A program made the position numbers and the translations under genes. A DNA stretch of 64,000 nt from an uncultured Bacteroidota bacterium (GTDB lineage: Bacteria > Bacteroidota > Bacteroidia > Chitinophagales > Chitinophagaceae), in NCBI GenBank assembly GCA_903877645.1, contig CAIRES010000080.1, positions 1 through 64,000 on the forward strand, written 5' to 3'. The notes under the pieces were generated by a model. The model made no database searches. It worked only from the letters and a program-made list of their open reading frames with translations, and was not told where the DNA came from. Positions 863 through 15,607 of the stretch are shown piece by piece. Position 1 is the first letter of the stretch. The number at the start of each line of letters is the position of its first letter.

Positions 863-3800
863 CAACATCACTGTCTGCAACAACAGGCACATCAGTAACT
901 GCAAGCCCTACATCAAACATTACATATACCGTTACCGGCACCGATGCATTAGGGTGCTCTAATACCGGAACAGTTACAGTAAATACCATCACGGCTCCTA
1001 CAGCTATTACAGGCACTCCTATAGTATGCGTACAAACCACATCTCCACTCGGCAATGGTGTATCGGGCGGCACATGGACCAGCAGCAATATCTCTTTAGC
1101 TACGGTAGGTATCACCGGAGGTTTACTTACCGGCTATGGCGCAGGCAATCCAACGATCACTTATACTTTAAGCAATGGCTGTTTCAAAACGGTTACTGCA
1201 ACTGTAAATCCTTTACCGGATTCTACGTTTACTATCACTCCAAATCATGTATGTCTCGGCAATTCTTCAACATTTGCCCCGGTAGTTTCGGGCGCAACTT
1301 TGTATAGCTGGAATTTTGCAGATGGCAATACTGGTACCGGCAATCCTTCAGTACATACTTATACTGTAGCTGCCATTTACACACCTACACTTACTGTAAC
1401 CAATTCATTCGGTTGTGTTTCTAATTTCAGGATGCAGACAACGATCAATGCATTACCGGTAGCTATTACCGGCACTGCATCAGTATGCGTTGGCCTTAAC
1501 ACTACATTGAGCGATGCTACAGGCACAGGCTCATGGACCAGCAGCGCACCGGGCACAGCAACAGTTGGCTCTGTTACGGGTGTGGTTAATGGCGTAGCAG
1601 CAGGCAATGCTAATATCACTTATACCACATCAGCGGGCTGTACCACTTTCCGCACAGTAACGGTAAATGCCTTACCCGGAGCAATCGGCAGCCTTGCAGG
1701 TATCTGCCCCGCTACATCTATTACGTTGACGGATGGTACCGCAGGCGGCACATGGACGAGCAGCAATACTGCTGTAGCTACCATTGTGGGCTCTACAGGC
1801 ACAGTGACCGGGGTATCTTCGGGATCCTCTACTATTACTTATACGTTACCAACAGGCTGTATCATCACTGCCCTTGAAACAGTGAACCCGAACCCGCCCG
1901 CGATCACCGGTGCAGGCGCTATCTGTTCTGGCTCGTCGTTAACGCTTGCGGACGGCATTGCCGGTGGCACGTGGAGCAGCGGCACCACCTCTGTGGCTAC
2001 AGTTGGCACATCTGGTGTAGTGCTGGGTGTATCAGGCGGTAGTTCTGTGATCAACTATACATTACCAACTACCTGTACAACAGCGGCAACGGTTACCGTA
2101 AATGCGTTGCCTAATGCGATAACCGGCACACCATTTGTTTGTACCGGCAGCACCACGGCATTGTCCACTACATCTACGGGCGGCACCTGGAGCAGCAGCA
2201 ATATACTACAAGGGTCTGTTAGCCCGTCAGGCACAGTGGCCGGCATATCAGCAGGCATTCCTAATATCAGCTATACATTGCCAACAGGTTGCTTTATCAA
2301 CATACCGGTAACTGTAAGTGCTACACCGGCAGCCATCACCGGCGCAAACAATGTTTGCGCAGGGTCTAATACTTCCCTTGCTAATGCTACTCCCGGCGGC
2401 ACCTGGAGCAGCTCCAATACTGCATTGGGCACTATCAGCACATCAGGTGTGGTAACCGGCATTTCTAATGGCACATTGAACATATCATATACTTCAGCAG
2501 CAGGCTGCGGTGTTGCATTGCCGTTCACTGTGAACATTACTCCTTCAGCAATTACCGGTACTGCTACTGTTTGTACAACAACTACCACAACACTCAACAG
2601 CACTCCTTCGGGCGGCGCATGGACCAGCAGCAATACTGCTCTGGCTACAGTTATTTCGGGTACAGGAGTAGTAACAGGCGTAGCAGCAGGCATACCGATC
2701 ATTGCTTATACACTTTCGGCGGGAAGCTGTAAAGCAACTATACCTGTTACTGTATTGGCTACCCCTGCTGCAATTGCAGGATCCAATAACGTATGTACCG
2801 GAACCAGCACCACACTTACCGATGCCACCGGCGGAGGCACATGGACCAGCGGAGCTACCGGCACTGCTACCATCGGGCTCACATCCGGCATTATGAATGG
2901 TGTAGCAGCAGGGACAACGGTCATTACGTATACCTCAGCAGCAGGTTGTAATAACTTCCTGAATGTGACAGTGAACACATCACCTTCAGCAATATCCGGC
3001 AGCGCAAATGTTTGCCTGGGTACCAGCAACTTATTAACTAATACATTATCCGGCGGTGCATGGACCAGCAGCAATACAGCCATTGCAACAGTTGGCACTA
3101 CAGGAAGCGTTTCTGGTATAACTACGGGCAATGCAACAATTACCTATACTGTAAATCCCGGGGCTTGTATCGCTATACTTCCAGTAACAGTGAACATGGC
3201 ACCAGCGTCCATAGGCGGATTAAACTTTGTATGTACCGGGTTGACGACCGTACTCACAGATGCCACAGCAAGTGGCTTATGGAGCAGCAGCACCACTGCA
3301 AATGCTACAGTAGGCTCAGGCACGGGTATCGTATCCGGCCTTACAGCAGGCACAACAACAACCATCAGCTACACATTAGCTAATGGCTGTAGCGCTATAT
3401 TGCCGATGAGTGTGAACCTGCAACCGGCAGCACTTACAGGTACTATGAATGTGTGTACAGGCCTTACAACAACACTGACCGAAACAACAACAGGCGGCAC
3501 ATGGAGCAGCAGCAATACTGCGCTGGATACCGTTAACACATCAGGTGTGGTAACCGGCATCTCAACAGGAACACCGACGATCAGCTATACGCTTTTAGGT
3601 TGCGCAGCCACACAGGTGGTTACCGTTAACCCCAGCCCGGCAGGCATTACAGGTTCTTCCGCAGTTTGCACTACCCAGACCATCACCCTTAGCGATGGCA
3701 CAACGGGCGGCTTATGGAGCAGCAGCATACCGGCTACAGGCAGCGTAGGAGCTACCACCGGTGTCGTTACCGGCATAGCAGCCGGCAATATCGTTATATC

Positions 3801-6800
3801 TTATACACTCGCTACAGGTTGTACTGCAACGAAAAACGTTACCGTAAATGCAATGCCTAATACGTATTCTATTAGTGCCGGCGGCAGCTATTGCTCCGGT
3901 GGCCCAGGAATAGATATTACCCTTTCAGGCTCAGATGCAGGCATCAGCTATCAATTGTACAATGGCACTACCGCATCAGGCAGCGCTGTAACAGGTGGCG
4001 GCAGCACTATAGACTTTGGGTTTAAAACTGCCGCAGGCACCTACACCGTAGTTGCTACTAATACGGTTACGGGTTGTACAAAAAATATGTCCGGCAGCTC
4101 CATAGTATCCATTAACCCGCTCCCTACTGCGTACTCTGTTAACGGCGGCGGTGGCTACTGTACAGGCGGCACAGGTGTGCACGTAGGCCTCAACAACTCT
4201 AATATCGGCATCAGTTATCAATTACTCAATGGCGGGTCTCCAACCGGCCTGCCATCAGTAGCAGGTACAGGTATTGCTCTTGATTTCGGGTTGATGACCA
4301 CGGCAGGCACGTATACTGTATTAGCGACTAATTCATCAACAAGCTGTACCAATACTATGTTGGGCAGCACAGTGGTGACCATCAACCCATTGCCTACTGC
4401 CATTACCGTAACAGGTGGCGGCAGCTATTGCATCGGCGGCACAGGGGTAGATATCGGACTGGCCACCCCTACTACTACCGGTGTCAACTACCAGTTGCTG
4501 AGAGGCACGACAGCAGTTGGCTTACCAATTGCAGGTTCAGGCTCTACTATTGACTTTGGCCTGATTACTACAGTTGGCACTTATAGTGTTTTTGCTACTA
4601 ATACAACAACGACCTGTTCCAATACTATGGCCAATACAGTTGTTGTCACTATCAATGCACTCCCTGTTTCTTACCTTGTATCGGGTGGCGGCGGCTATTG
4701 CCCCGGCACCGCAGGCAGCGTGGTTAACCTGAGCAACTCTACGCTTGGCGTTAACTATAACCTGATCCTGAGCGGAACAACTGTAGCTACAGTTGCCGGC
4801 AGCGGCAGCGGCATCAGTTTCCCCGCGCAAACTACGGCAGGCACCTATACCGTTAGCGGTACAAACGGCACATCATGCACCAATGCGATGACCGGCAGTG
4901 TCACTATTTCCGTTAATCCATTGCCAACCACATTCAGTGTTACAGGTGGTGGTGGTTATTGCACAGGCGGCACAGGTGTTCATTTACGCCTTAGCGGTTC
5001 TGCGCTCAGCACGAGCTATCAATTATATAACGGATCAACAACTACAGGCACCGCAGTTATTGGCTCAGGTGGCCCGCTTGATTTCGGCATATTCACAGCA
5101 GTAGGTACTTACACCGTATCCGCTACCAGCTCTGTTACATCCTGCAGCACCGGCATGGCCGGCAGCCAGGTAGTCACCATCAATCCTTTACCGGCCACAT
5201 TCAGCATGTCTGCCGGCGGCGGTTTCTGCGTTGGCGGATCAGGCATTGACGTACGGTTGCTTGGATCAGCTACAGGAGTCACCTACCAATTATACAGGGG
5301 TACTGTACCCGTAGGCATACCGGTTGGCGGCACAGGATCGGCTATCGACTATGGCAACCAAACTATCGGCGGCACTTATACCGTTACTGCTACCGTTACG
5401 GCCACAACCTGTAGCAGCGCAATGACCGGCAGTACCACAGTAACCGCTAACCCGTTACCGACAGCATTCACAGTTACGGGCGGCGGTAGCTATTGTGCTT
5501 CAGCCACAGGCGTGCATGTGTTCTTAAGCGGATCTTCAACCGGCGTTACTTACAGCCTGATCAATTCGAGCACTACCGTTGCAACTGCAACCGGAACAGG
5601 CACTACACTTGACTTCGGCTTACAAACTGCAACAGGCGGATATACTGTTACTGCACTAAGCACAGCGGGATGTTCGAATAACATGACCGGAAGCGTAAGC
5701 GTAAGCATCAACCCGCTGCCTACAGCCTATGTGGTAGGCGGTGGTGGCAGCTACTGTGCTACAGGCACAGGCAGCCACATTACGCTTGGCGGCTCTAATA
5801 CAGGCATCAATTACCAATTATATTATGGCACTACACCACTTGGCAGCGCTGTTGCAGGCGGAGCATCCACTATTGACTTCGGCGCCGTGACAGGTGTTGG
5901 GGTGTACAGCGTTTCTGCTACCAACCCTGCTACCGGCTGTACTAAGAATATGACCGGCACAGTATCAGTATCGATCAACGCATTACCAATCCCTTATCCG
6001 GTAACAGTGGGTAGCGGCGGCCTTTACTGCGCAGGTGGTGTTGGTGTACCGGTTGGTGTATCTATTACTACTTCAGGTACCAGCTACCAGCTATACCGCA
6101 ATGGCACGTCCATAGGCAGCTCTATCCTTAGTACAGGTGTTCCTATCAGCTTTGGCAACGAAACGCTTGCAGGCACCTACTCAGTTGTGGCTACAAGTGG
6201 CCCGGGCTGTACTAATAACATGGCAGGCACAGTAACTGTAAGCACTAATCCTTTACCCACTACCTATTCTATAGCCGGCGGCGGCGGTTATTGCCCAGGC
6301 AGCACCACAGGTGTTCATGTCACCCTGAGTGGCTCTAACACAGGCATCAATTACCTGTTATACAAGTCAGGCACAAGTGCAGGCACTTTCATCGGGTCAG
6401 GTTCCACCATCGACTTTGGCGGCATCACTGCTACCGGCACTTATACTGCCATAGCGATGAACCCCGTTACTTCCTGCACAGTAAATATGCTCAGCAGCGT
6501 GACTGTATCGACCAATATTCTCCCGACTGCATATACCATGACAGGTGGCGGCTCTTATTGCATTGGCAGCACAGGAGTACCTGTGGGATTGAGCAATGCC
6601 CAGGGTGGCGTGAACTACCAGCTCTACAATGGCACCACACCTATTGGCGGCCTGTTCCCCGGCACTTCCGGTACACCGATCAACTTTGGTATGGAAACCG
6701 CAGGATCTTATTCGGTGATCGCATCTGATGCCACTACATCCTGTACGCAGGTGATGACGCTGACCATAGCCGTTACTGCGACTTCTCTGCCAACTCCATT

Positions 6801-9800
6801 TAATGTTACAGGTGGTGGCAACTATTGCGCAGGCAGTGGTGGTTCGGTGATTGGCCTCGACGGTTCCCTTGGCGGCATCTCTTACCAGCTTTATGTGAGT
6901 GGCACACCAACAGGCTTCGCTGTTCCGGGCGGTGGCGGTGCTATCTCCTTTGGCGCACAAACAACTGCAGGCACTTATACTGTAATGGCTACCGGCGCTT
7001 GCTCAGGCGCTATGGCAGGCAGTGTGAACGTGGGCATCAACCCTGTACCTGCTGATTATCCGGTATCCGGCGGTGGCAATTACTGCGCTGGCGGCACAGG
7101 TGTGCACGTAGGCCTCGGAGGCTCACAATCGGGCATTAAATATCAATTATATAACACAGGAGCTCCCGTTGGCGGCCTGGTGAGCGGCACAGGTACAGCA
7201 CTCGACTTCGGACTGCAAACAGCAGCCGGTTCTTACACAGTTGTGGCGACAAACCTTTCCACTACATGTGCTGATACAACAACAGGCGCAGGCGCTACGG
7301 TCGGCATCAATACGCCCCCTACAGCTTATCCATTGTCAGGCGGCAGCAGTTATTGCGCAGGCGGTGCAGGCATAACACTTAACCTAAGCTTTACAGACCT
7401 AAGTACCGCTTACCAGGTTTACGATGGCACTACAGCCATTGGCACCCCGGTAACAGGCATTAGCGCGGCACTTTCATTCGGCCCCTACACAGCAGCAGGC
7501 ATCTATAGTGTTGTTGCCACAGATCTGACAACGACTTGTAAGAATACAATGATCGGTAACGACACTGTAACTATCAACCCGCTACCCACTACATACATCG
7601 TCAGTGGCGGTGGCACCTATTGTGACGGCGGCGCGGGTATGGATGTTATGTTGAGCAACTCCAATACAGGCATCAGTTACCAGCTATACAATGGCACTAC
7701 ACCTGCAACCGGCGCAGTGGCCGGCACAGGTTCAGCAATTGACTTTGGCGACCAGGCTGCAGCAGGTGTTTATACTGTTATCGCTACCAACAGCGCCACA
7801 ACCTGCCACAGCAATATGGTGAGCAGCGCGGTAGTAGGCATCAACCCCGCACCGGCATCACACGCCATCATCAACGGCGGGAGCTACTGCGCAGGCGCAA
7901 GCGGCGTGCATATCGGCCTTGCCGGATCTGATGCAGGCATCAGCTACCAGCTATTCAATGGCTCCGGCACTGCTGGCAGCCCGGTATTTGGTACCGGTGC
8001 ATCAATTGACTTTGGCTTATTCGCTGCTACCGGCACGTACAAAGTTGTAGCTACCAACCTTACTACTGGTTGCGCTAACCATATCAACGACAGCACGGTC
8101 GTTTCGACTACTCCATTACCTATAGCGTATGCAGTAAGCAGCAGTGCAAGCTCATTCTGCGCCGGTGGTGCAGGGGTGCATGTATTCCTGAGCAATGGTG
8201 ATGCTACTGTTAGTTACCAGTTATACAGGGGTACAGTAGCTGTGGGCCCTGCGGTCATTGGCAGCAGTTCCATTATTGACTTCGGCGCGCAAACCGTTGC
8301 CGGCACATATACAGTAATGGCAACTAACGGCACAAGTTGCAGCACACGCATGACCGGCAGTGCAGTGATCACCATCAACCCCGCCCCGGACGCGTTCAGC
8401 ATCACAGGTGGTGGCAGTTATTGCACAGGCGGCACAGGAGTGCATGTTGGCCTTGCAGGTTCATCAATAGGTACATCTTACCAGTTGAACTTAGCCAGTG
8501 TAGCAGTTGGCATCCCGGTTCCGGGCACAGGTTCGGCTCTTGATCTCGGTGTACAAACCGCATCAGGCGCCTACACCATCACAGCTACTAATACCACAGG
8601 TTGTGTGGCCACTATGACCGGCAGCGCATCTGTAGGCATCAATACATTACCTGCTGTGTTTACAGTAACCGGTGGTGGCAATTATTGCGCAGGCACTACT
8701 GGCATCCCATTAAGCCTCACAGGATCTTCAACCGGCACTAAGTACCGGCTTTACCTCGGCACTACAGCCGTTGGCAGCATGGTAACAGGCACCGGATCAG
8801 CGATCAGCTTAGGCACAGAAACTGCTGCCGGCACATATACTGCCGTGGCTGTTAATGACACCACAGGCTGCACCAGCACTATGACCAGCAGTGCAGTAGT
8901 GGGTATCAATCCATTACCCGGCACTTATGCAATTACCGGTGGCGGCAACTTCTGCCCGGGCAGCGCCGGCGTGCATATCGGGCTGAGTGGTTCGCATACA
9001 GGTATTACTTATCAGTTGTTCGATACTTCATCGGTTATCGGCGCAGCAATAACAGGTACAGGCCTTCCTATCGACTTTGGCTTGCTTACAGGCACAGGCC
9101 ATTATACTATCGTTGCCACCGATGCATCTACTATGTGTACGGCCAACATGACCGGCACAGCGATAGTATCACTCAACGTGCTTCCTTCAGTGTATACTGT
9201 TTCAGGCGGTGGCGGCTATTGCGCAGGCACAGCAGGCGTACATATCGGCCTGAGCAACTCAAGTATAGGAGTGGTGTACCAGTTGCACAACGGTACCAGC
9301 ACAGCAGGATCGCCACTGGCAGGCACCGGCAGCGCTATCGACTTCGGTACATTTACCACAGGTACTTATACTGCGGTTGCAACCAGCAGCAGCACATCAT
9401 GCACCAGCAATATGACAGGCACTGCTACAGTAAGTGTTAACCCAACAGTTACACCATCTGTAAGCATTGCGTCCGGAACAAGTGATACCGTATGCTCCGG
9501 CACACTGATCACCTTCACAGCCGTACCGGTAAATGGAGGTACAACTCCTGCTTACCAATGGACAATTAACGGTGTGTCTATATCAGCAGCAAGTTCTTAT
9601 GCTTACCTGCCTGCAAATGGCGATGTAGTGAGTGTAACACTTATCAGCAGCGCACTCTGTCCGTTCCCTGCTACAGCAAACAATGCTGTCGAAATGACGG
9701 TATTGCCGCAACTGATGCCTTCTGTAACAACAACTGTTGATCCCGGCACCACGGTTTGCCAGGGTACTGCAGTTACGTTCACTGCTGCTGTCACCAATGG

Positions 9801-10539
9801 TGGCACCACACCGGTCTATGTATGGAAGCTGAACAGCATAACTACTGCCAGCACTTCTGCCGCTTACACATTCACACCGGCTAACGGGGATGTAGTATAT
9901 TGCCAGGTGACCAGCAACTACCAGTGTGCACTTGTAAACACCGTGGCCAGTACGCATACTGCTATTGAAGTAGATATTCCTACTACTCCTATAGTGGCCA
10001 TCAGCGCCAACCCCGGCACTCATCTTGCTAATGGGCAGAATGTGGTATTTACGGCCAATGTGACCAACGGAGTGAGTGCTGTGAGTTACCAATGGAGTGT
10101 GAATGGTGCTGCTATAAACGGCGCAACAACACAGGTATACATCACTAATACCCTCGGCAACCTCGACAACGTAAGCTGCACGGTAACCACTACCGGTAGT
10201 TGCTCAGGCCTCGCCGGCAGTGCAAGTACCCAGGTATTTGTGAGTAATGTAGGTGTGCAGCAAGTGTCCACCGGTAATGATGCTATTATCCTCGTTCCTA
10301 ACCCGAATAAGGGCATCTTCACCCTGAAAGGCTCACTGGCAAATACTATGGAACAGGAAGTGACTATTGAGATCACCAATATGCTGGGCCAAGTCATCTA
10401 CAACGGCAAGGCTGCTGTGCATAACGGGGATATAGATGAGAAAATACAACTGGGCAATAACACAGCCAACGGTATGTATCTGCTCAACCTCCGCACAGCA
10501 TCAGGAAATAAAGTGTTCCATATGGTTGTGGAACAATAA
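862..10539 (+). CDS. Giant repeat adhesin with T9SS type A sorting domain, 5' truncated
   Basis: The frame is open from the junction to a TAA at 10537-10539, about 3,225 residues, and has no real start here; a TTG at 1300 is internal. Order of parts: the end of an Ig-like domain, one ~72-residue Ig-like unit (1000-1218), a PKD domain (1219-1458, with SWNFADG), eleven more units of the same Ig-like type, 21 units of an ~88-residue module, three ~89-residue Ig-like units, and a C-terminal tail (10246-10536) with VPNPNKGIF and NGMYLLNL, as in T9SS type A sorting domains. It should be exported by the Sec and type IX systems and fixed to the cell surface as an adhesin or filament. The signal peptide is lost with the 5' end. 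Long Thr/Ser/Gly-rich repeats make this stretch prone to misassembly. Confidence 0.88.
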   Translation, partial: ATSLSATTGTSVTASPTSNITYTVTGTDALGCSNTGTVTVNTITAPTAITGTPIVCVQTTSPLGNGVSGGTWTSSNISLATVGITGGLLTGYGAGNPTITYTLSNGCFKTVTATVNPLPDSTFTITPNHVCLGNSSTFAPVVSGATLYSWNFADGNTGTGNPSVHTYTVAAIYTPTLTVTNSFGCVSNFRMQTTINALPVAITGTASVCVGLNTTLSDATGTGSWTSSAPGTATVGSVTGVVNGVAAGNANITYTTSAGCTTFRTVTVNALPGAIGSLAGICPATSITLTDGTAGGTWTSSNTAVATIVGSTGTVTGVSSGSSTITYTLPTGCIITALETVNPNPPAITGAGAICSGSSLTLADGIAGGTWSSGTTSVATVGTSGVVLGVSGGSSVINYTLPTTCTTAATVTVNALPNAITGTPFVCTGSTTALSTTSTGGTWSSSNILQGSVSPSGTVAGISAGIPNISYTLPTGCFINIPVTVSATPAAITGANNVCAGSNTSLANATPGGTWSSSNTALGTISTSGVVTGISNGTLNISYTSAAGCGVALPFTVNITPSAITGTATVCTTTTTTLNSTPSGGAWTSSNTALATVISGTGVVTGVAAGIPIIAYTLSAGSCKATIPVTVLATPAAIAGSNNVCTGTSTTLTDATGGGTWTSGATGTATIGLTSGIMNGVAAGTTVITYTSAAGCNNFLNVTVNTSPSAISGSANVCLGTSNLLTNTLSGGAWTSSNTAIATVGTTGSVSGITTGNATITYTVNPGACIAILPVTVNMAPASIGGLNFVCTGLTTVLTDATASGLWSSSTTANATVGSGTGIVSGLTAGTTTTISYTLANGCSAILPMSVNLQPAALTGTMNVCTGLTTTLTETTTGGTWSSSNTALDTVNTSGVVTGISTGTPTISYTLLGCAATQVVTVNPSPAGITGSSAVCTTQTITLSDGTTGGLWSSSIPATGSVGATTGVVTGIAAGNIVISYTLATGCTATKNVTVNAMPNTYSISAGGSYCSGGPGIDITLSGSDAGISYQLYNGTTASGSAVTGGGSTIDFGFKTAAGTYTVVATNTVTGCTKNMSGSSIVSINPLPTAYSVNGGGGYCTGGTGVHVGLNNSNIGISYQLLNGGSPTGLPSVAGTGIALDFGLMTTAGTYTVLATNSSTSCTNTMLGSTVVTINPLPTAITVTGGGSYCIGGTGVDIGLATPTTTGVNYQLLRGTTAVGLPIAGSGSTIDFGLITTVGTYSVFATNTTTTCSNTMANTVVVTINALPVSYLVSGGGGYCPGTAGSVVNLSNSTLGVNYNLILSGTTVATVAGSGSGISFPAQTTAGTYTVSGTNGTSCTNAMTGSVTISVNPLPTTFSVTGGGGYCTGGTGVHLRLSGSALSTSYQLYNGSTTTGTAVIGSGGPLDFGIFTAVGTYTVSATSSVTSCSTGMAGSQVVTINPLPATFSMSAGGGFCVGGSGIDVRLLGSATGVTYQLYRGTVPVGIPVGGTGSAIDYGNQTIGGTYTVTATVTATTCSSAMTGSTTVTANPLPTAFTVTGGGSYCASATGVHVFLSGSSTGVTYSLINSSTTVATATGTGTTLDFGLQTATGGYTVTALSTAGCSNNMTGSVSVSINPLPTAYVVGGGGSYCATGTGSHITLGGSNTGINYQLYYGTTPLGSAVAGGASTIDFGAVTGVGVYSVSATNPATGCTKNMTGTVSVSINALPIPYPVTVGSGGLYCAGGVGVPVGVSITTSGTSYQLYRNGTSIGSSILSTGVPISFGNETLAGTYSVVATSGPGCTNNMAGTVTVSTNPLPTTYSIAGGGGYCPGSTTGVHVTLSGSNTGINYLLYKSGTSAGTFIGSGSTIDFGGITATGTYTAIAMNPVTSCTVNMLSSVTVSTNILPTAYTMTGGGSYCIGSTGVPVGLSNAQGGVNYQLYNGTTPIGGLFPGTSGTPINFGMETAGSYSVIASDATTSCTQVMTLTIAVTATSLPTPFNVTGGGNYCAGSGGSVIGLDGSLGGISYQLYVSGTPTGFAVPGGGGAISFGAQTTAGTYTVMATGACSGAMAGSVNVGINPVPADYPVSGGGNYCAGGTGVHVGLGGSQSGIKYQLYNTGAPVGGLVSGTGTALDFGLQTAAGSYTVVATNLSTTCADTTTGAGATVGINTPPTAYPLSGGSSYCAGGAGITLNLSFTDLSTAYQVYDGTTAIGTPVTGISAALSFGPYTAAGIYSVVATDLTTTCKNTMIGNDTVTINPLPTTYIVSGGGTYCDGGAGMDVMLSNSNTGISYQLYNGTTPATGAVAGTGSAIDFGDQAAAGVYTVIATNSATTCHSNMVSSAVVGINPAPASHAIINGGSYCAGASGVHIGLAGSDAGISYQLFNGSGTAGSPVFGTGASIDFGLFAATGTYKVVATNLTTGCANHINDSTVVSTTPLPIAYAVSSSASSFCAGGAGVHVFLSNGDATVSYQLYRGTVAVGPAVIGSSSIIDFGAQTVAGTYTVMATNGTSCSTRMTGSAVITINPAPDAFSITGGGSYCTGGTGVHVGLAGSSIGTSYQLNLASVAVGIPVPGTGSALDLGVQTASGAYTITATNTTGCVATMTGSASVGINTLPAVFTVTGGGNYCAGTTGIPLSLTGSSTGTKYRLYLGTTAVGSMVTGTGSAISLGTETAAGTYTAVAVNDTTGCTSTMTSSAVVGINPLPGTYAITGGGNFCPGSAGVHIGLSGSHTGITYQLFDTSSVIGAAITGTGLPIDFGLLTGTGHYTIVATDASTMCTANMTGTAIVSLNVLPSVYTVSGGGGYCAGTAGVHIGLSNSSIGVVYQLHNGTSTAGSPLAGTGSAIDFGTFTTGTYTAVATSSSTSCTSNMTGTATVSVNPTVTPSVSIASGTSDTVCSGTLITFTAVPVNGGTTPAYQWTINGVSISAASSYAYLPANGDVVSVTLISSALCPFPATANNAVEMTVLPQLMPSVTTTVDPGTTVCQGTAVTFTAAVTNGGTTPVYVWKLNSITTASTSAAYTFTPANGDVVYCQVTSNYQCALVNTVASTHTAIEVDIPTTPIVAISANPGTHLANGQNVVFTANVTNGVSAVSYQWSVNGAAINGATTQVYITNTLGNLDNVSCTVTTTGSCSGLAGSASTQVFVSNVGVQQVSTGNDAIILVPNPNKGIFTLKGSLANTMEQEVTIEITNMLGQVIYNGKAAVHNGDIDEKIQLGNNTANGMYLLNLRTASGNKVFHMVVEQ
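1459..3858 (+). repeat. Eleven tandem ~72-residue Ig-like modules
   Basis: Each unit reads roughly (A)ITG..xVC.G..T.L......GGTWSSSNTA.ATV....GVVTG...G...I.YTL..GC....VTVN..P. I count eleven in a row after the PKD domain, and a twelfth copy precedes it at 1000-1218. Most units keep one Cys near the start and one in the GC near the end, so each could be closed by its own disulphide. Units differ at many positions, so this is an old array, not a recent expansion. Confidence 0.85.
3859..9444 (+). repeat. Twenty-one tandem ~88-residue Gly/Cys modules
   Basis: Each unit begins with a form of Y.VTGGGSYCAGGTGVHV and continues GLSGS..GISYQLYNGTT, then G(S/T)AIDFG, AGTYTVVATN, a second Cys (TGC or TSC), NMTGS and V.INPLP. 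I count 21 starts with GGG.YC or a close variant; unit 17 is the most divergent there (SSSASSFC). The two conserved Cys per unit suggest one disulphide per module. The module type changes abruptly at 3859 from the shorter Ig-like units. I do not recognise the module as a named adhesin domain. Confidence 0.83.
9445..10245 (+). repeat. Three ~89-residue Ig-like modules before the T9SS tail
   Basis: Three units share a pattern of P.V.I....GT.VC.GT.VTFTA...NGG, then Y.W..NG, then ANGD.V.C..T. They look like the Ig/PKD-like spacers that often precede T9SS tails in Bacteroidota surface proteins. The third unit lacks the first Cys and reads HLANGQNVVFTA. Confidence 0.75.
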
Positions 10540-10597: not shown

Positions 10598-10728
10598 GGG
10601 ATCTGCAACTATGCAGCAATTTTCACACCAGATATACCGCATCTTACCTGAAAAAAAAGAAGTAATTTAGCACCTAACTTTTCGGCTTCAATTATATTTA
10701 TTAGTTTTAGGTTTTAAACATCTGCTAA

Positions 10729-13612: not shown

Positions 13613-14170
13613 ATGCAGAATAGACCAAAACCAAAACCATTTTTCAGGCCACGGGTTCCGCAGAATGAACACCGTTTGAACAACGAGATCACCGCACTGG
13701 AAGTACGTGTAATAGGTGACGATATTGAGCCGGGTATATACCCTGTTGCTGATGCAATAAAGATGGCCATTGCTAAGGAAGTGGATCTTGTAGAGATATC
13801 GCCTAACGCAGTACCACCTGTATGCAGGATCATTGACTATAAAAAATTCCTTTACGAAAAGAAGAAAAAAGATAAGGAGCAGAAGGCAAAGGCAAAACAA
13901 TCTGAAGTAAAGGAAATACGCTTTACACCAAATACCGATGACCACGATTTTGATTTCAAAGCAAAACATGCCGAAAAATTCCTGCAGGATGGCAATAAAG
14001 TGAAGTGCTATGTGCAGTTCAAAGGCAGGGCCATCATGTTTCAGGAGCGCGGTGAATTGCTCCTCCTGAAGTTTGCTGAGCGTATGGCCGAATATGGCGC
14101 ACTCGAATCGATGCCTAAAATGGAAGGAAAACGAATGTTGGCTATGTTTTCACCTAAAAAGAAAAAATAA
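13613..14170 (+). CDS. infC: Translation initiation factor IF-3
   Basis: The 185-residue product has the IF-3 N-domain ([15 protein letters not shown]), the Lys-rich linker helix ([19 protein letters not shown]) and the C-domain ([31 protein letters not shown]). IF-3 binds the 30S subunit, keeps it free of 50S and checks the initiator codon. The start is an ordinary ATG, not the rare AUU used in enterobacteria. In most Bacteroidota rpmI and rplT follow directly. Here they do not: the next 330 bases hold two tandem promoter/hairpin units and then an unrelated secreted protein. Confidence 0.96.
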
Positions 14171-14244: not shown

Positions 14245-14275
14245 TTTGTTTTAACTAAAAGTCATATTATCTTTG
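14245..14275 (+). promoter_or_regulatory. Full consensus promoter of RNA unit 1
   Basis: TTTG (14245-14248), exactly 19 bases, then TATCTTTG (14268-14275). This is an exact fit to TTTG-N19-TAnnTTTG, the -33/-7 promoter described for Bacteroides. No open reading frame of note starts behind it before the hairpin at 14351-14372. Confidence 0.75.
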
Positions 14276-14279
14276 TAAC

Positions 14280-14379
14280 GGTTAAAATTATCAAAAAGAT
14301 CATTATCTTTTCAGCATAAAGAAGTTTTCATGGTGATAGGGTTTATAGGGGCTGGCCTGTTCTCAGGCTGGCTTTTTTA
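14280..14379 (+). ncRNA. Putative small RNA 1 of a tandem pair
   Basis: Transcription from the promoter at 14245-14275 would start near 14280 and stop at a hairpin (14351-14359 with 14364-14372, nine pairs including two G-U, loop UUCU) followed by six T. The predicted RNA is about 100 nt. Its last ~57 nt (14326-14383) are almost identical to the second unit at 14441-14497. No ORF fits. The alternative is that both units are untranslated leaders or attenuators of the gene at 14531. The ends are estimates from the promoter and hairpin. Confidence 0.5.
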
Positions 14380-14403
14380 TTTTCACTGTTCCCGAAAATT
14401 GTT

Positions 14404-14434
14404 TTTGTAGTTACTAAAGGACATGCTATTTTTG
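14404..14434 (+). promoter_or_regulatory. Full consensus promoter of RNA unit 2
   Basis: TTTG (14404-14407), exactly 19 bases, then TATTTTTG (14427-14434): the same perfect -33/-7 architecture as unit 1. The predicted transcription start falls at about the first base of the repeated unit. Confidence 0.75.
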
Positions 14435-14438
14435 TAAA

Positions 14439-14494
14439 AGTTTCATAGTGATAGGGTTTATAGGGGCTGGCCTGTTCTCAGGCTGGCTTTTTTA
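14439..14494 (+). ncRNA. Putative small RNA 2 of a tandem pair
   Basis: The predicted RNA of about 55 nt runs from just after the box at 14427-14434 to the U-run of the hairpin 14466-14474 / 14479-14487. The repeated part contains GTGATAGGGTTTATAGGGG followed by the hairpin, the same as in unit 1 apart from one or two substitutions. The hairpin ends 37 bases before the start codon at 14531, so read-through could also feed that gene, which would make the unit an attenuator. Repetition together with a fresh promoter each time favours a small-RNA gene pair, but this is inference. Confidence 0.5.
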
Positions 14495-14530
14495 TTTGAT
14501 AAAATGCTTATTTTCACAAAAAACTCTTTT

Positions 14531-15607
14531 ATGAGGTCAACTGTACTTAGCCTGTTATTTATTTTGTCGGTTGCTACTTCGGTAAAGGCACAGTTAGCCG
14601 AATATACTGATATTCAAAATCAGCTCATGGTGTGGGACCACGGCAATATCCATAAAGTAGATTTCATGCCGCCCACTGACATTAAAACGGGCCGCACTGC
14701 AATTCCATATCTCGACAACTCCCGCTCGTTCAAAATATACTACAATGGCAGCGTACAAAACCTTAATGCGGGGTTCACCAATGCTTTTTTTGCTACCGAT
14801 AATCTTGTTGGCTACCTGAATCAAAAATCCCTGAATGTATTTGACAGGGGCGTAAATAAAAACCTTTCCGGTGTTTGCGATCAGTATTTCATTTCAGATA
14901 GTGTTATCCTTTTTCTCGATAGCTATAAAAGCGAATACAGGGCCTATTACAACGGCCAAACCTACACCGTGGAGTCGTATATACCAGACAGCGTATTATC
15001 GCACGTAAAGGTTAAATGTAACGTCATTGCTTACGACAATTTTGCGAGCCAGTTCAGGATATTCTATCACGGGGCTGTAATATCGCAGGAAGAGTATCCT
15101 GTGCATAGCTTTGATGCGGGCAGAAATACAGTGGCCTACGTAGACATAGATCACAAATTCAAAGTATTTCACAGCGGACAAACTTTTGTACTTGATGACT
15201 ATGCCCCTTTATCCTACAAGGCAGGAGATAACCTGGTGGCCTATGTATCCGGAGATGGTTACTTCAAAGTATTTTATGGCGACAGCCTCCATACTATTGG
15301 CTATATGAACCCCACTTACCAGGTAGGCGAGAATGTAGTAGCCTATAAAGACCCGGGAGGCATGTTCAAGATATTCTATAAAGGAGATGTTACCGAAATG
15401 GAAAGCTACTACCCTACCGGATATTTCATACAATACAATTCAGTAGCGTATATCAACTCAAGCGGCACACTACGCCTGTTTACTGAAGGTGAAGCGTATG
15501 ATGTAACAAATGCAGAACTGGCCAACTGGAGCCTCAATTATGATGTGATCACCTACCAGATAGGCCAGGGCATCTTCAAGGTATTCTATAAAGGGAATGA
15601 GTATTAG
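14531..15607 (+). CDS. Secreted protein made of ~40-residue beta repeats
   Basis: I chose the ATG at 14531 because it begins a clean signal peptide (MRSTVLSLLFILSVATSVKAQ); an upstream in-frame ATG at 14504 sits almost on the terminator hairpin. The 358-residue product is built of about eight units of the form N.VAY.D..G.FK(V/I)FY.G......Y.P..Y, for example FKIYYNGSVQNL, FRIFYHGAVISQ, FKVFHSGQTFVL, FKVFYGDSLHTI and FKIFYKGDVTEM. This would fold as a repeated beta structure such as a propeller. No catalytic motif is seen. Its stop overlaps the stop of the convergent glycosyltransferase gene by four bases (TTAG). Confidence 0.72.
   Translation: MRSTVLSLLFILSVATSVKAQLAEYTDIQNQLMVWDHGNIHKVDFMPPTDIKTGRTAIPYLDNSRSFKIYYNGSVQNLNAGFTNAFFATDNLVGYLNQKSLNVFDRGVNKNLSGVCDQYFISDSVILFLDSYKSEYRAYYNGQTYTVESYIPDSVLSHVKVKCNVIAYDNFASQFRIFYHGAVISQEEYPVHSFDAGRNTVAYVDIDHKFKVFHSGQTFVLDDYAPLSYKAGDNLVAYVSGDGYFKVFYGDSLHTIGYMNPTYQVGENVVAYKDPGGMFKIFYKGDVTEMESYYPTGYFIQYNSVAYINSSGTLRLFTEGEAYDVTNAELANWSLNYDVITYQIGQGIFKVFYKGNEY

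What the first reader, a model, noticed from the sequence alone, without database searches (positions are those of the whole stretch)
14245..14497. Two tandem promoter/RNA/terminator units after infC
Seen: two promoters, each an exact TTTG-N19-TAnnTTTG (14245-14275 and 14404-14434), each followed by an almost identical ~57-base segment ending in the same nine-pair hairpin and a T-run. No ORF lies inside. Known: this promoter layout is the consensus of Bacteroidota primary sigma factors. Inference: a duplicated small-RNA gene, or a pair of attenuators ahead of the gene at 14531. The position, where rpmI and rplT are usual, is itself odd.
Basis: partly seen in the sequence, partly recalled or inferred. 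Interest (0 to 1): 0.7.

Follow-up and report, generated by a model that had tools for sequence, protein, structure and literature searches.

The report
Tandem start-codon-seeded small RNA genes
Two small RNA genes sit side by side after the gene for translation factor IF3 in a Chitinophagaceae bacterium; they belong to an undescribed multi-copy family whose front end can pair with the start of messenger RNAs, much like the FopS gene-silencing RNAs of gut Bacteroides.

Summary
Two exact promoters, a 57-nt repeat (98% identical) and a nine-pair terminator hairpin are present at the stated coordinates. The pair is kept downstream of infC across the genus and in related genera: 54 distinct tandem pairs, with the second promoter at a near-constant distance. 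The same RNA occurs in up to about 10 copies per genome elsewhere, after unrelated genes and in either orientation to the next gene. Hairpin pairs co-vary, while a 28-nt unpaired 5' arm (UUUUCAURGUGAUAGGGUUUAUAGGGG) is almost invariant. The variation does not follow codons. This supports small RNA genes and argues against attenuators.

The 5' end UUUUCAU is complementary to AUGAAAA, the commonest gene start here. In two gene sets the 5' arm pairs with translation starts better than 98/100 and 200/200 shuffled arms. The same seed is found in Bacteroides FopS (RF04319), in a second, undescribed family in about 40 other Chitinophagaceae genera, and in a bridge sequence from Taibaiella soli. Best reading: a FopS-like, trans-acting translational repressor family. 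It fails Rfam's FopS cut-off, so it is a new relative or variant rather than FopS itself. Expression, targets and protein partner are untested.

The parts
13613..14170 (+). infC (translation initiation factor IF-3), the conserved upstream neighbour
   Evidence: TIGR00168 equivalog 195.5 bits; PF00707/PF05198
14245..14275 (+). promoter of unit 1, TTTG-N19-TATCTTTG
   Evidence: exact match; a TAnnTTTG box at this place in 43 of 54 tandem pairs, against 4.2 in shuffled sequence
14276..14324 (+). unit 1 leader: variable stretch ending in a conserved AGCATAAAGAAG
   Evidence: comparison of infC loci
14325..14334 (+). unit 1 seed UUUUCAUGGU, complementary to a start codon context AUGAAAA
   Evidence: conservation; start-region-specific duplex energies
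14335..14350 (+). unit 1 invariant core GAUAGGGUUUAUAGGG
   Evidence: near-invariant in 187 distinct copies
14351..14378 (+). unit 1 intrinsic terminator: stem 14351-14359/14364-14372, loop UUCU, T-run 14373-14378
   Evidence: fold; covariation; model match 14323-14378, 85.7 bits
14404..14434 (+). promoter of unit 2, TTTG-N19-TATTTTTG
   Evidence: exact match; a box at the fixed place in 34 of 54 pairs, nearly all exactly 16 nt before GATAGGG, against 1.4 in shuffled sequence
14441..14449 (+). unit 2 seed UUUCAUAGU (one U shorter than in relatives)
14450..14465 (+). unit 2 invariant core GAUAGGGUUUAUAGGG
14466..14493 (+). unit 2 intrinsic terminator: stem 14466-14474/14479-14487, T-run 14488-14493
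   Evidence: fold; model match 14438-14493, 83.1 bits
14504..15607 (+). downstream neighbour: secreted 10-bladed beta-propeller protein (likely start 14531); not regarded as part of the RNA genes
   Evidence: PF21734, 1.2e-128

Best explanation
Two paralogous genes for short intrinsic-terminated RNAs (about 100 nt and about 57 nt), members of a multi-copy small-RNA family of the Flavipsychrobacter/Taibaiella part of Chitinophagaceae. Shown by sequence: each unit has its own housekeeping promoter, a nearly invariant unpaired 5' arm and a covarying terminator hairpin, and copies are dispersed and kept across genera. Inferred: the RNA acts in trans. Its 5' seed UUUUCAURGU pairs across the start codon (AUGAAAA...) of target mRNAs and blocks ribosome entry, as FopS does to susC mRNAs in Bacteroides. 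The GAUAGGGUUUAUAGGGG core serves another purpose, most likely binding a protein (the RRM protein encoded in this genome is a candidate) or protecting the RNA.
For: Both units and promoters are kept downstream of infC in nearly all genus members and in other genera. Copies are dispersed, up to about 10 per genome. Hairpin covariation: 99.5% of cells paired, 34 cells with changes on both sides against 7.0 in shuffles (0/500 as high), and slid controls fail. The 5' arm is almost invariant although unpaired. The variation is not coding-like. Start-region pairing: own genome, 599 genes, better than 98/100 shuffled arms; relatives, 583 genes, better than 200/200; inside genes the arm is ordinary (68/200). 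The effect sits in the 5' half (2/120) and not in the core (74/120), and the reversed arm is null. ATGAAAA is the commonest start (50/599). The FopS model matches both copies end to end, weakly. A bridge RNA in L343 aligns to unit 1 with no shuffle of 10,000 reaching its score and to FopS over 20 of 22 bases (1/10,000). FopS mechanism from PMC11697453. An RRM protein is encoded in this genome.
Against: No RNA-seq, Northern or target data. FopS bit scores (20.4, 15.8) are far below its cut-off of 56. No target with near-complete complementarity exists in this genome. The most conserved part of the arm is not the part that favours start regions, and short-form copies lack the seed altogether, so the core must have a further role. 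The gene starts used in the pairing tests are predicted, and an A-rich start context favours any UUUUCAU.
Confidence: 0.62

Rival explanations
1. Cis-acting attenuators or leaders of the downstream beta-propeller gene.
For: At infC the pair usually lies just ahead of a co-oriented beta-propeller gene, unit 2 often within 100 nt of its start.
Against: Elsewhere the next gene is opposite-stranded in 40 of 75 copies. Relatives keep unit 1 with a convergent gene behind it (L139, L029). No alternative antiterminator fold was seen; the arm upstream of the hairpin is unpaired in unit 2. In genus g18 the beta-propeller gene follows infC without any copy (L336).
Confidence: 0.08
2. Only a spreading strong-terminator element: a portable transcription stop copied around the genome, with no function for the RNA itself.
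For: Several copies lie directly behind stop codons of HU, integrase and ATPase genes; the hairpin plus T-run is a textbook terminator; similar hairpins sit behind phage genes.
Against: A terminator needs no invariant 28-nt unpaired 5' arm, no private promoter at constant spacing, and no start-codon-complementary end.
Confidence: 0.15
3. A protein-binding sponge or decoy: the GAUAGGGUUUAUAGGGG core titrates an RNA-binding protein, and the start-codon seed is secondary.
For: The core is more conserved than the seed, is kept in short-form copies that lack the seed, and shows no preference for start regions. FopS binds RbpB in Bacteroides (PMC11697453), and an RRM protein is encoded here.
Against: The seed is kept in most copies, at a fixed place near the predicted 5' end, and is shared with two other families. 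The two roles are not exclusive.
Confidence: 0.13
4. A tiny membrane peptide gene (MVIGFIGAGLFSGWLFYF...) instead of an RNA.
For: Unit 1 has an ATG in frame with a hydrophobic glycine-rich stretch; the same frame is open in most copies.
Against: Changes fall evenly on the three codon positions (54/42/59); W to R and G to D changes are common because they keep base pairs; four variants carry stops; unit 2 has no ATG; there is no stop codon before the terminator.
Confidence: 0.02

Closest known systems
FopS, family of paralogous sRNAs of Bacteroides (Rfam RF04319; PMC11697453)
   Same: Multi-copy, intergenic plus 3'-UTR copies, housekeeping promoters, an unpaired 5' stretch with seed UUUUCAUrGU near the 5' end followed by one intrinsic terminator, and traces in a phage contig. 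The FopS model aligns end to end with both window copies.
   Different: Only 20.4 and 15.8 bits against a cut-off of 56; GGGUUUAUAGGGG core instead of AUUUAAGGUUAAU; found in Chitinophagaceae; some copies have no seed; no target or protein shown.
GibS sRNA of Bacteroides thetaiotaomicron
   Same: According to PMC11697453, shares the R1 seed with FopS and acts near start codons.
   Different: Single gene with a second seed R2; GibS itself was not compared with the window here.
R2-model family found here: Chitinophagaceae RNA AAUUUUCAUAGGAUAAGGUUUAAUGGUUAAUGGUAUUUGAUUAG + terminator
   Same: Same seed and a matching second block (UUUUCAUAG-GAUA-GGUUUA); 3/5000 shuffles as similar.
   Different: Longer arm, usually one copy per genome (up to 10); found in 40 other genera and not together with the window family when strong matches are counted (28 and 52 of 147 genomes, overlap 0).
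L20 leader (RF00558)
   Same: A weak match (24.3 bits, cut-off 58.7) from the terminator hairpin and A/U-rich spacer.
   Different: No rpmI-rplT behind it; no match in the diagnostic part of the model; not a member.

Membership tests
FopS sRNA family (RF04319) | Score at or above Rfam's curated cut-off (56 bits) | tested here: not met
   20.4 and 15.8 bits; no own-genome match at E<=0.2
FopS sRNA family (RF04319) | Unpaired 5' stretch with R1 seed UUUUCAUrGU followed by a single Rho-independent terminator | tested here: met
   folds and alignments
FopS sRNA family (RF04319) | Multiple paralogous copies per genome (12-15 in Bacteroides) | tested here: met
   up to about 10 in relatives, but only 2 in this genome
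FopS sRNA family (RF04319) | Seed pairs with translation initiation regions (susC and others) | tested here: inconclusive
   statistical preference for start regions; no single target shown
FopS sRNA family (RF04319) | Bound by the RRM protein RbpB | not testable with these tools
   one RRM_1 protein is encoded in the genome; binding unknown
Transcription attenuator / cis leader | Stands upstream of, and co-directional with, the regulated gene wherever it occurs | tested here: not met
   35 same-strand against 40 opposite-strand next genes away from infC
L20 leader (RF00558) | Score above cut-off and rpmI/rplT downstream | tested here: not met
   24.3 against 58.7 bits; rplT on another contig
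Small protein gene | Codon-like substitution pattern and a stop codon within the transcript | tested here: not met

The most novel reading that the evidence does not exclude
FopS of Bacteroides, the window family and the R2-model family are branches of one ancient Bacteroidota small-RNA superfamily built on an anti-start-codon 5' seed (UUUUCAURG) plus a clade-specific core and a terminator, each branch expanded and spread partly by mobile elements, and acting with RRM proteins as a phylum-wide post-transcriptional system.
Probability: 0.45. Interest if true: 0.78.

Novelty: new variant of a known kind. Interest (0 to 1): 0.6.

Why it matters
Small-RNA regulation in Bacteroidota is known mainly from gut Bacteroides, where FopS was described as conserved within Bacteroidaceae. 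A second and third multi-copy family with the same start-codon seed in soil and freshwater Chitinophagaceae would mean that this mode of repression is much older and wider than glycan use in the gut. It also gives two covariance models, cultivable hosts (Taibaiella, Flavipsychrobacter) and simple predictions to test. These RNAs are not matched by any Rfam 15 family and so are missing from current annotation.

Tried and rejected
Rfam at curated thresholds: nothing in the window. At loose thresholds, L20 leader, PyrR and CyaR matches are carried by the terminator hairpin alone. Near-perfect complementary targets in the own genome with up to 3 mismatches: none apart from the RNA genes themselves. 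Small peptide: rejected. Named phages and plasmids: no match. Weak matches of the model elsewhere in the phylum are mostly ordinary terminators without the arm. A first script used wrong stem indices and rejected every copy; corrected.

Full report
Observation. Upstream is infC; downstream a secreted 10-bladed beta-propeller protein. rplT is on another contig of the same genome; in 19 other genera of the family that I read, only three have rpmI-rplT behind infC. The unusual position is therefore a shared rearrangement.

Conservation. A search of 99 relatives with the second unit found it in most members of the genus and in genera g2, g6, g12 and g21, often at 95-100% identity, and in several places per genome. 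Reading behind infC shows both units in the same order and orientation. Among 54 distinct tandem pairs, the second unit's TAnnTTTG box is present in 34 (1.4 expected in shuffled sequence), nearly all exactly 16 nt before GATAGGG. The first unit has a box in 43 pairs (4.2 expected), 47-69 nt before it. So the predicted transcripts are a short one that begins near the UUUUCAU seed and a longer one with a variable leader. Spacing between the two cores varies from 103 to 449 nt, so this is not one rigid unit.

Structure against coding. In an alignment of 46 distinct copies, 99.5% of stem cells pair, five of nine pairs show changes on both sides, and 34 cells carry such changes against 7.0 in shuffles (0 of 500 as high); slid controls collapse. 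The 5' arm is nearly invariant but unpaired. A hydrophobic peptide frame runs through the segment, but substitutions are spread over all codon positions, W-to-R and G-to-D changes are frequent because they preserve pairing, and stops occur.

Dispersed copies. Of 187 distinct copies in hand, 109 are at infC or the beta-propeller gene and 78 elsewhere. Elsewhere the next gene is on the same strand in 35 and on the opposite strand in 40, which excludes a general attenuator role. Some copies directly follow genes for HU, tyrosine recombinases or an ATPase (named from their sequences by eye). Others are a short form in which a promoter abuts GATAGGG, so that the UUUUCAU seed is missing. The window's own genome has only the two infC copies at a convincing score. 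One viral contig with terminase and integrase genes carries three weak matches.

Relation to FopS. With relaxed limits Rfam's FopS model aligns from end to end with both copies, but at 20.4 and 15.8 bits against a cut-off of 56. Scanning the family with that model uncovered a second RNA family in other Chitinophagaceae genera, AATTTTCATAGGATAAGGTTTAATGGTTAATGGTATTTGATTAG plus a terminator. Aligned arms are more alike than dinucleotide shuffles: window unit 2 against that family 3/5000, that family against FopS 7/5000, window unit 1 against FopS 43/5000. One RNA, in the genome that also carries the Taibaiella soli copies (L343, position 3726), aligns with unit 1 over GCATAAAGANGTTTTCATGGTGATA and matches FopS at 20 of 22 bases; 0 and 1 of 10,000 shuffles reach these scores. 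That RNA was found with the FopS model, so its likeness to FopS is selected; its likeness to the window is not. Strong matches to the two Chitinophagaceae models do not overlap: 28 and 52 of 147 genomes, overlap 0, about 10 expected, although shared ancestry inflates this contrast.

Mechanism. FopS RNAs block translation by pairing next to the start codon of susC mRNAs, and the RRM protein RbpB opposes them (PMC11697453). Here UUUUCAU is the complement of AUGAAAA, the commonest gene start in the part of the genome read (50 of 599). The arm pairs more strongly with start regions than 98 of 100 shuffled arms in this genome, and than all 200 in 583 genes of relatives, while inside genes it is ordinary, 68 of 200. 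The preference lies in the 5' half (2/120); the invariant core has none (74/120) and the reversed arm has none. I conclude that the seed is shaped for start regions and that the core has another task, probably protein binding; an RRM protein exists in the genome. Steps shown: gene architecture, conservation, covariation, dispersal, statistical start-region complementarity. Steps inferred: expression, trans action, repression, protein partner, common descent with FopS.

Verdict. It works like FopS on sequence evidence, but it is not filed as FopS because the curated cut-off was tested and not met.

Noticed in passing
L295, L297, L298, L301, L305, L310, L314, L319, L323, L392, L395, L399, L400, L402 (match at about 1500; L314 at 244): A second undescribed small-RNA family, AATTTTCATAGGATAAGGTTTAATGGTTAATGGTATTTGATTAG plus a variable terminator, almost letter-identical in the arm across about 40 Chitinophagaceae genera and up to 10 copies in one genome (G443).
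   Followed up: partly
L343:3650-3790: Bridge RNA in a genome with Taibaiella soli copies: unit-1-type leader and seed followed by a FopS-type ATTTAAG block and a terminator.
   Followed up: partly
L087, L093, L095 (about 2430-2530): Double-hairpin copies: a divergent CATAGGGTATATAG unit fused head to tail with a CATAAGGTTTATAGGGG unit behind a single promoter.
   Followed up: no
L231:6439-6521, 10372-10408, 10642-10670: Viral contig (integrase, terminase, portal by eye) with three family-like hairpins, two of them behind its structural genes; suggests phage-borne spread.
   Followed up: partly
L138:1816, L054:2532: Copies directly behind what look like tyrosine recombinase genes, another hint of spread by mobile elements.
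   Followed up: no
window 1300-10539: A 3079-aa secreted repeat protein with many similar modules and a C-terminal sorting-signal-like end.
   Followed up: no
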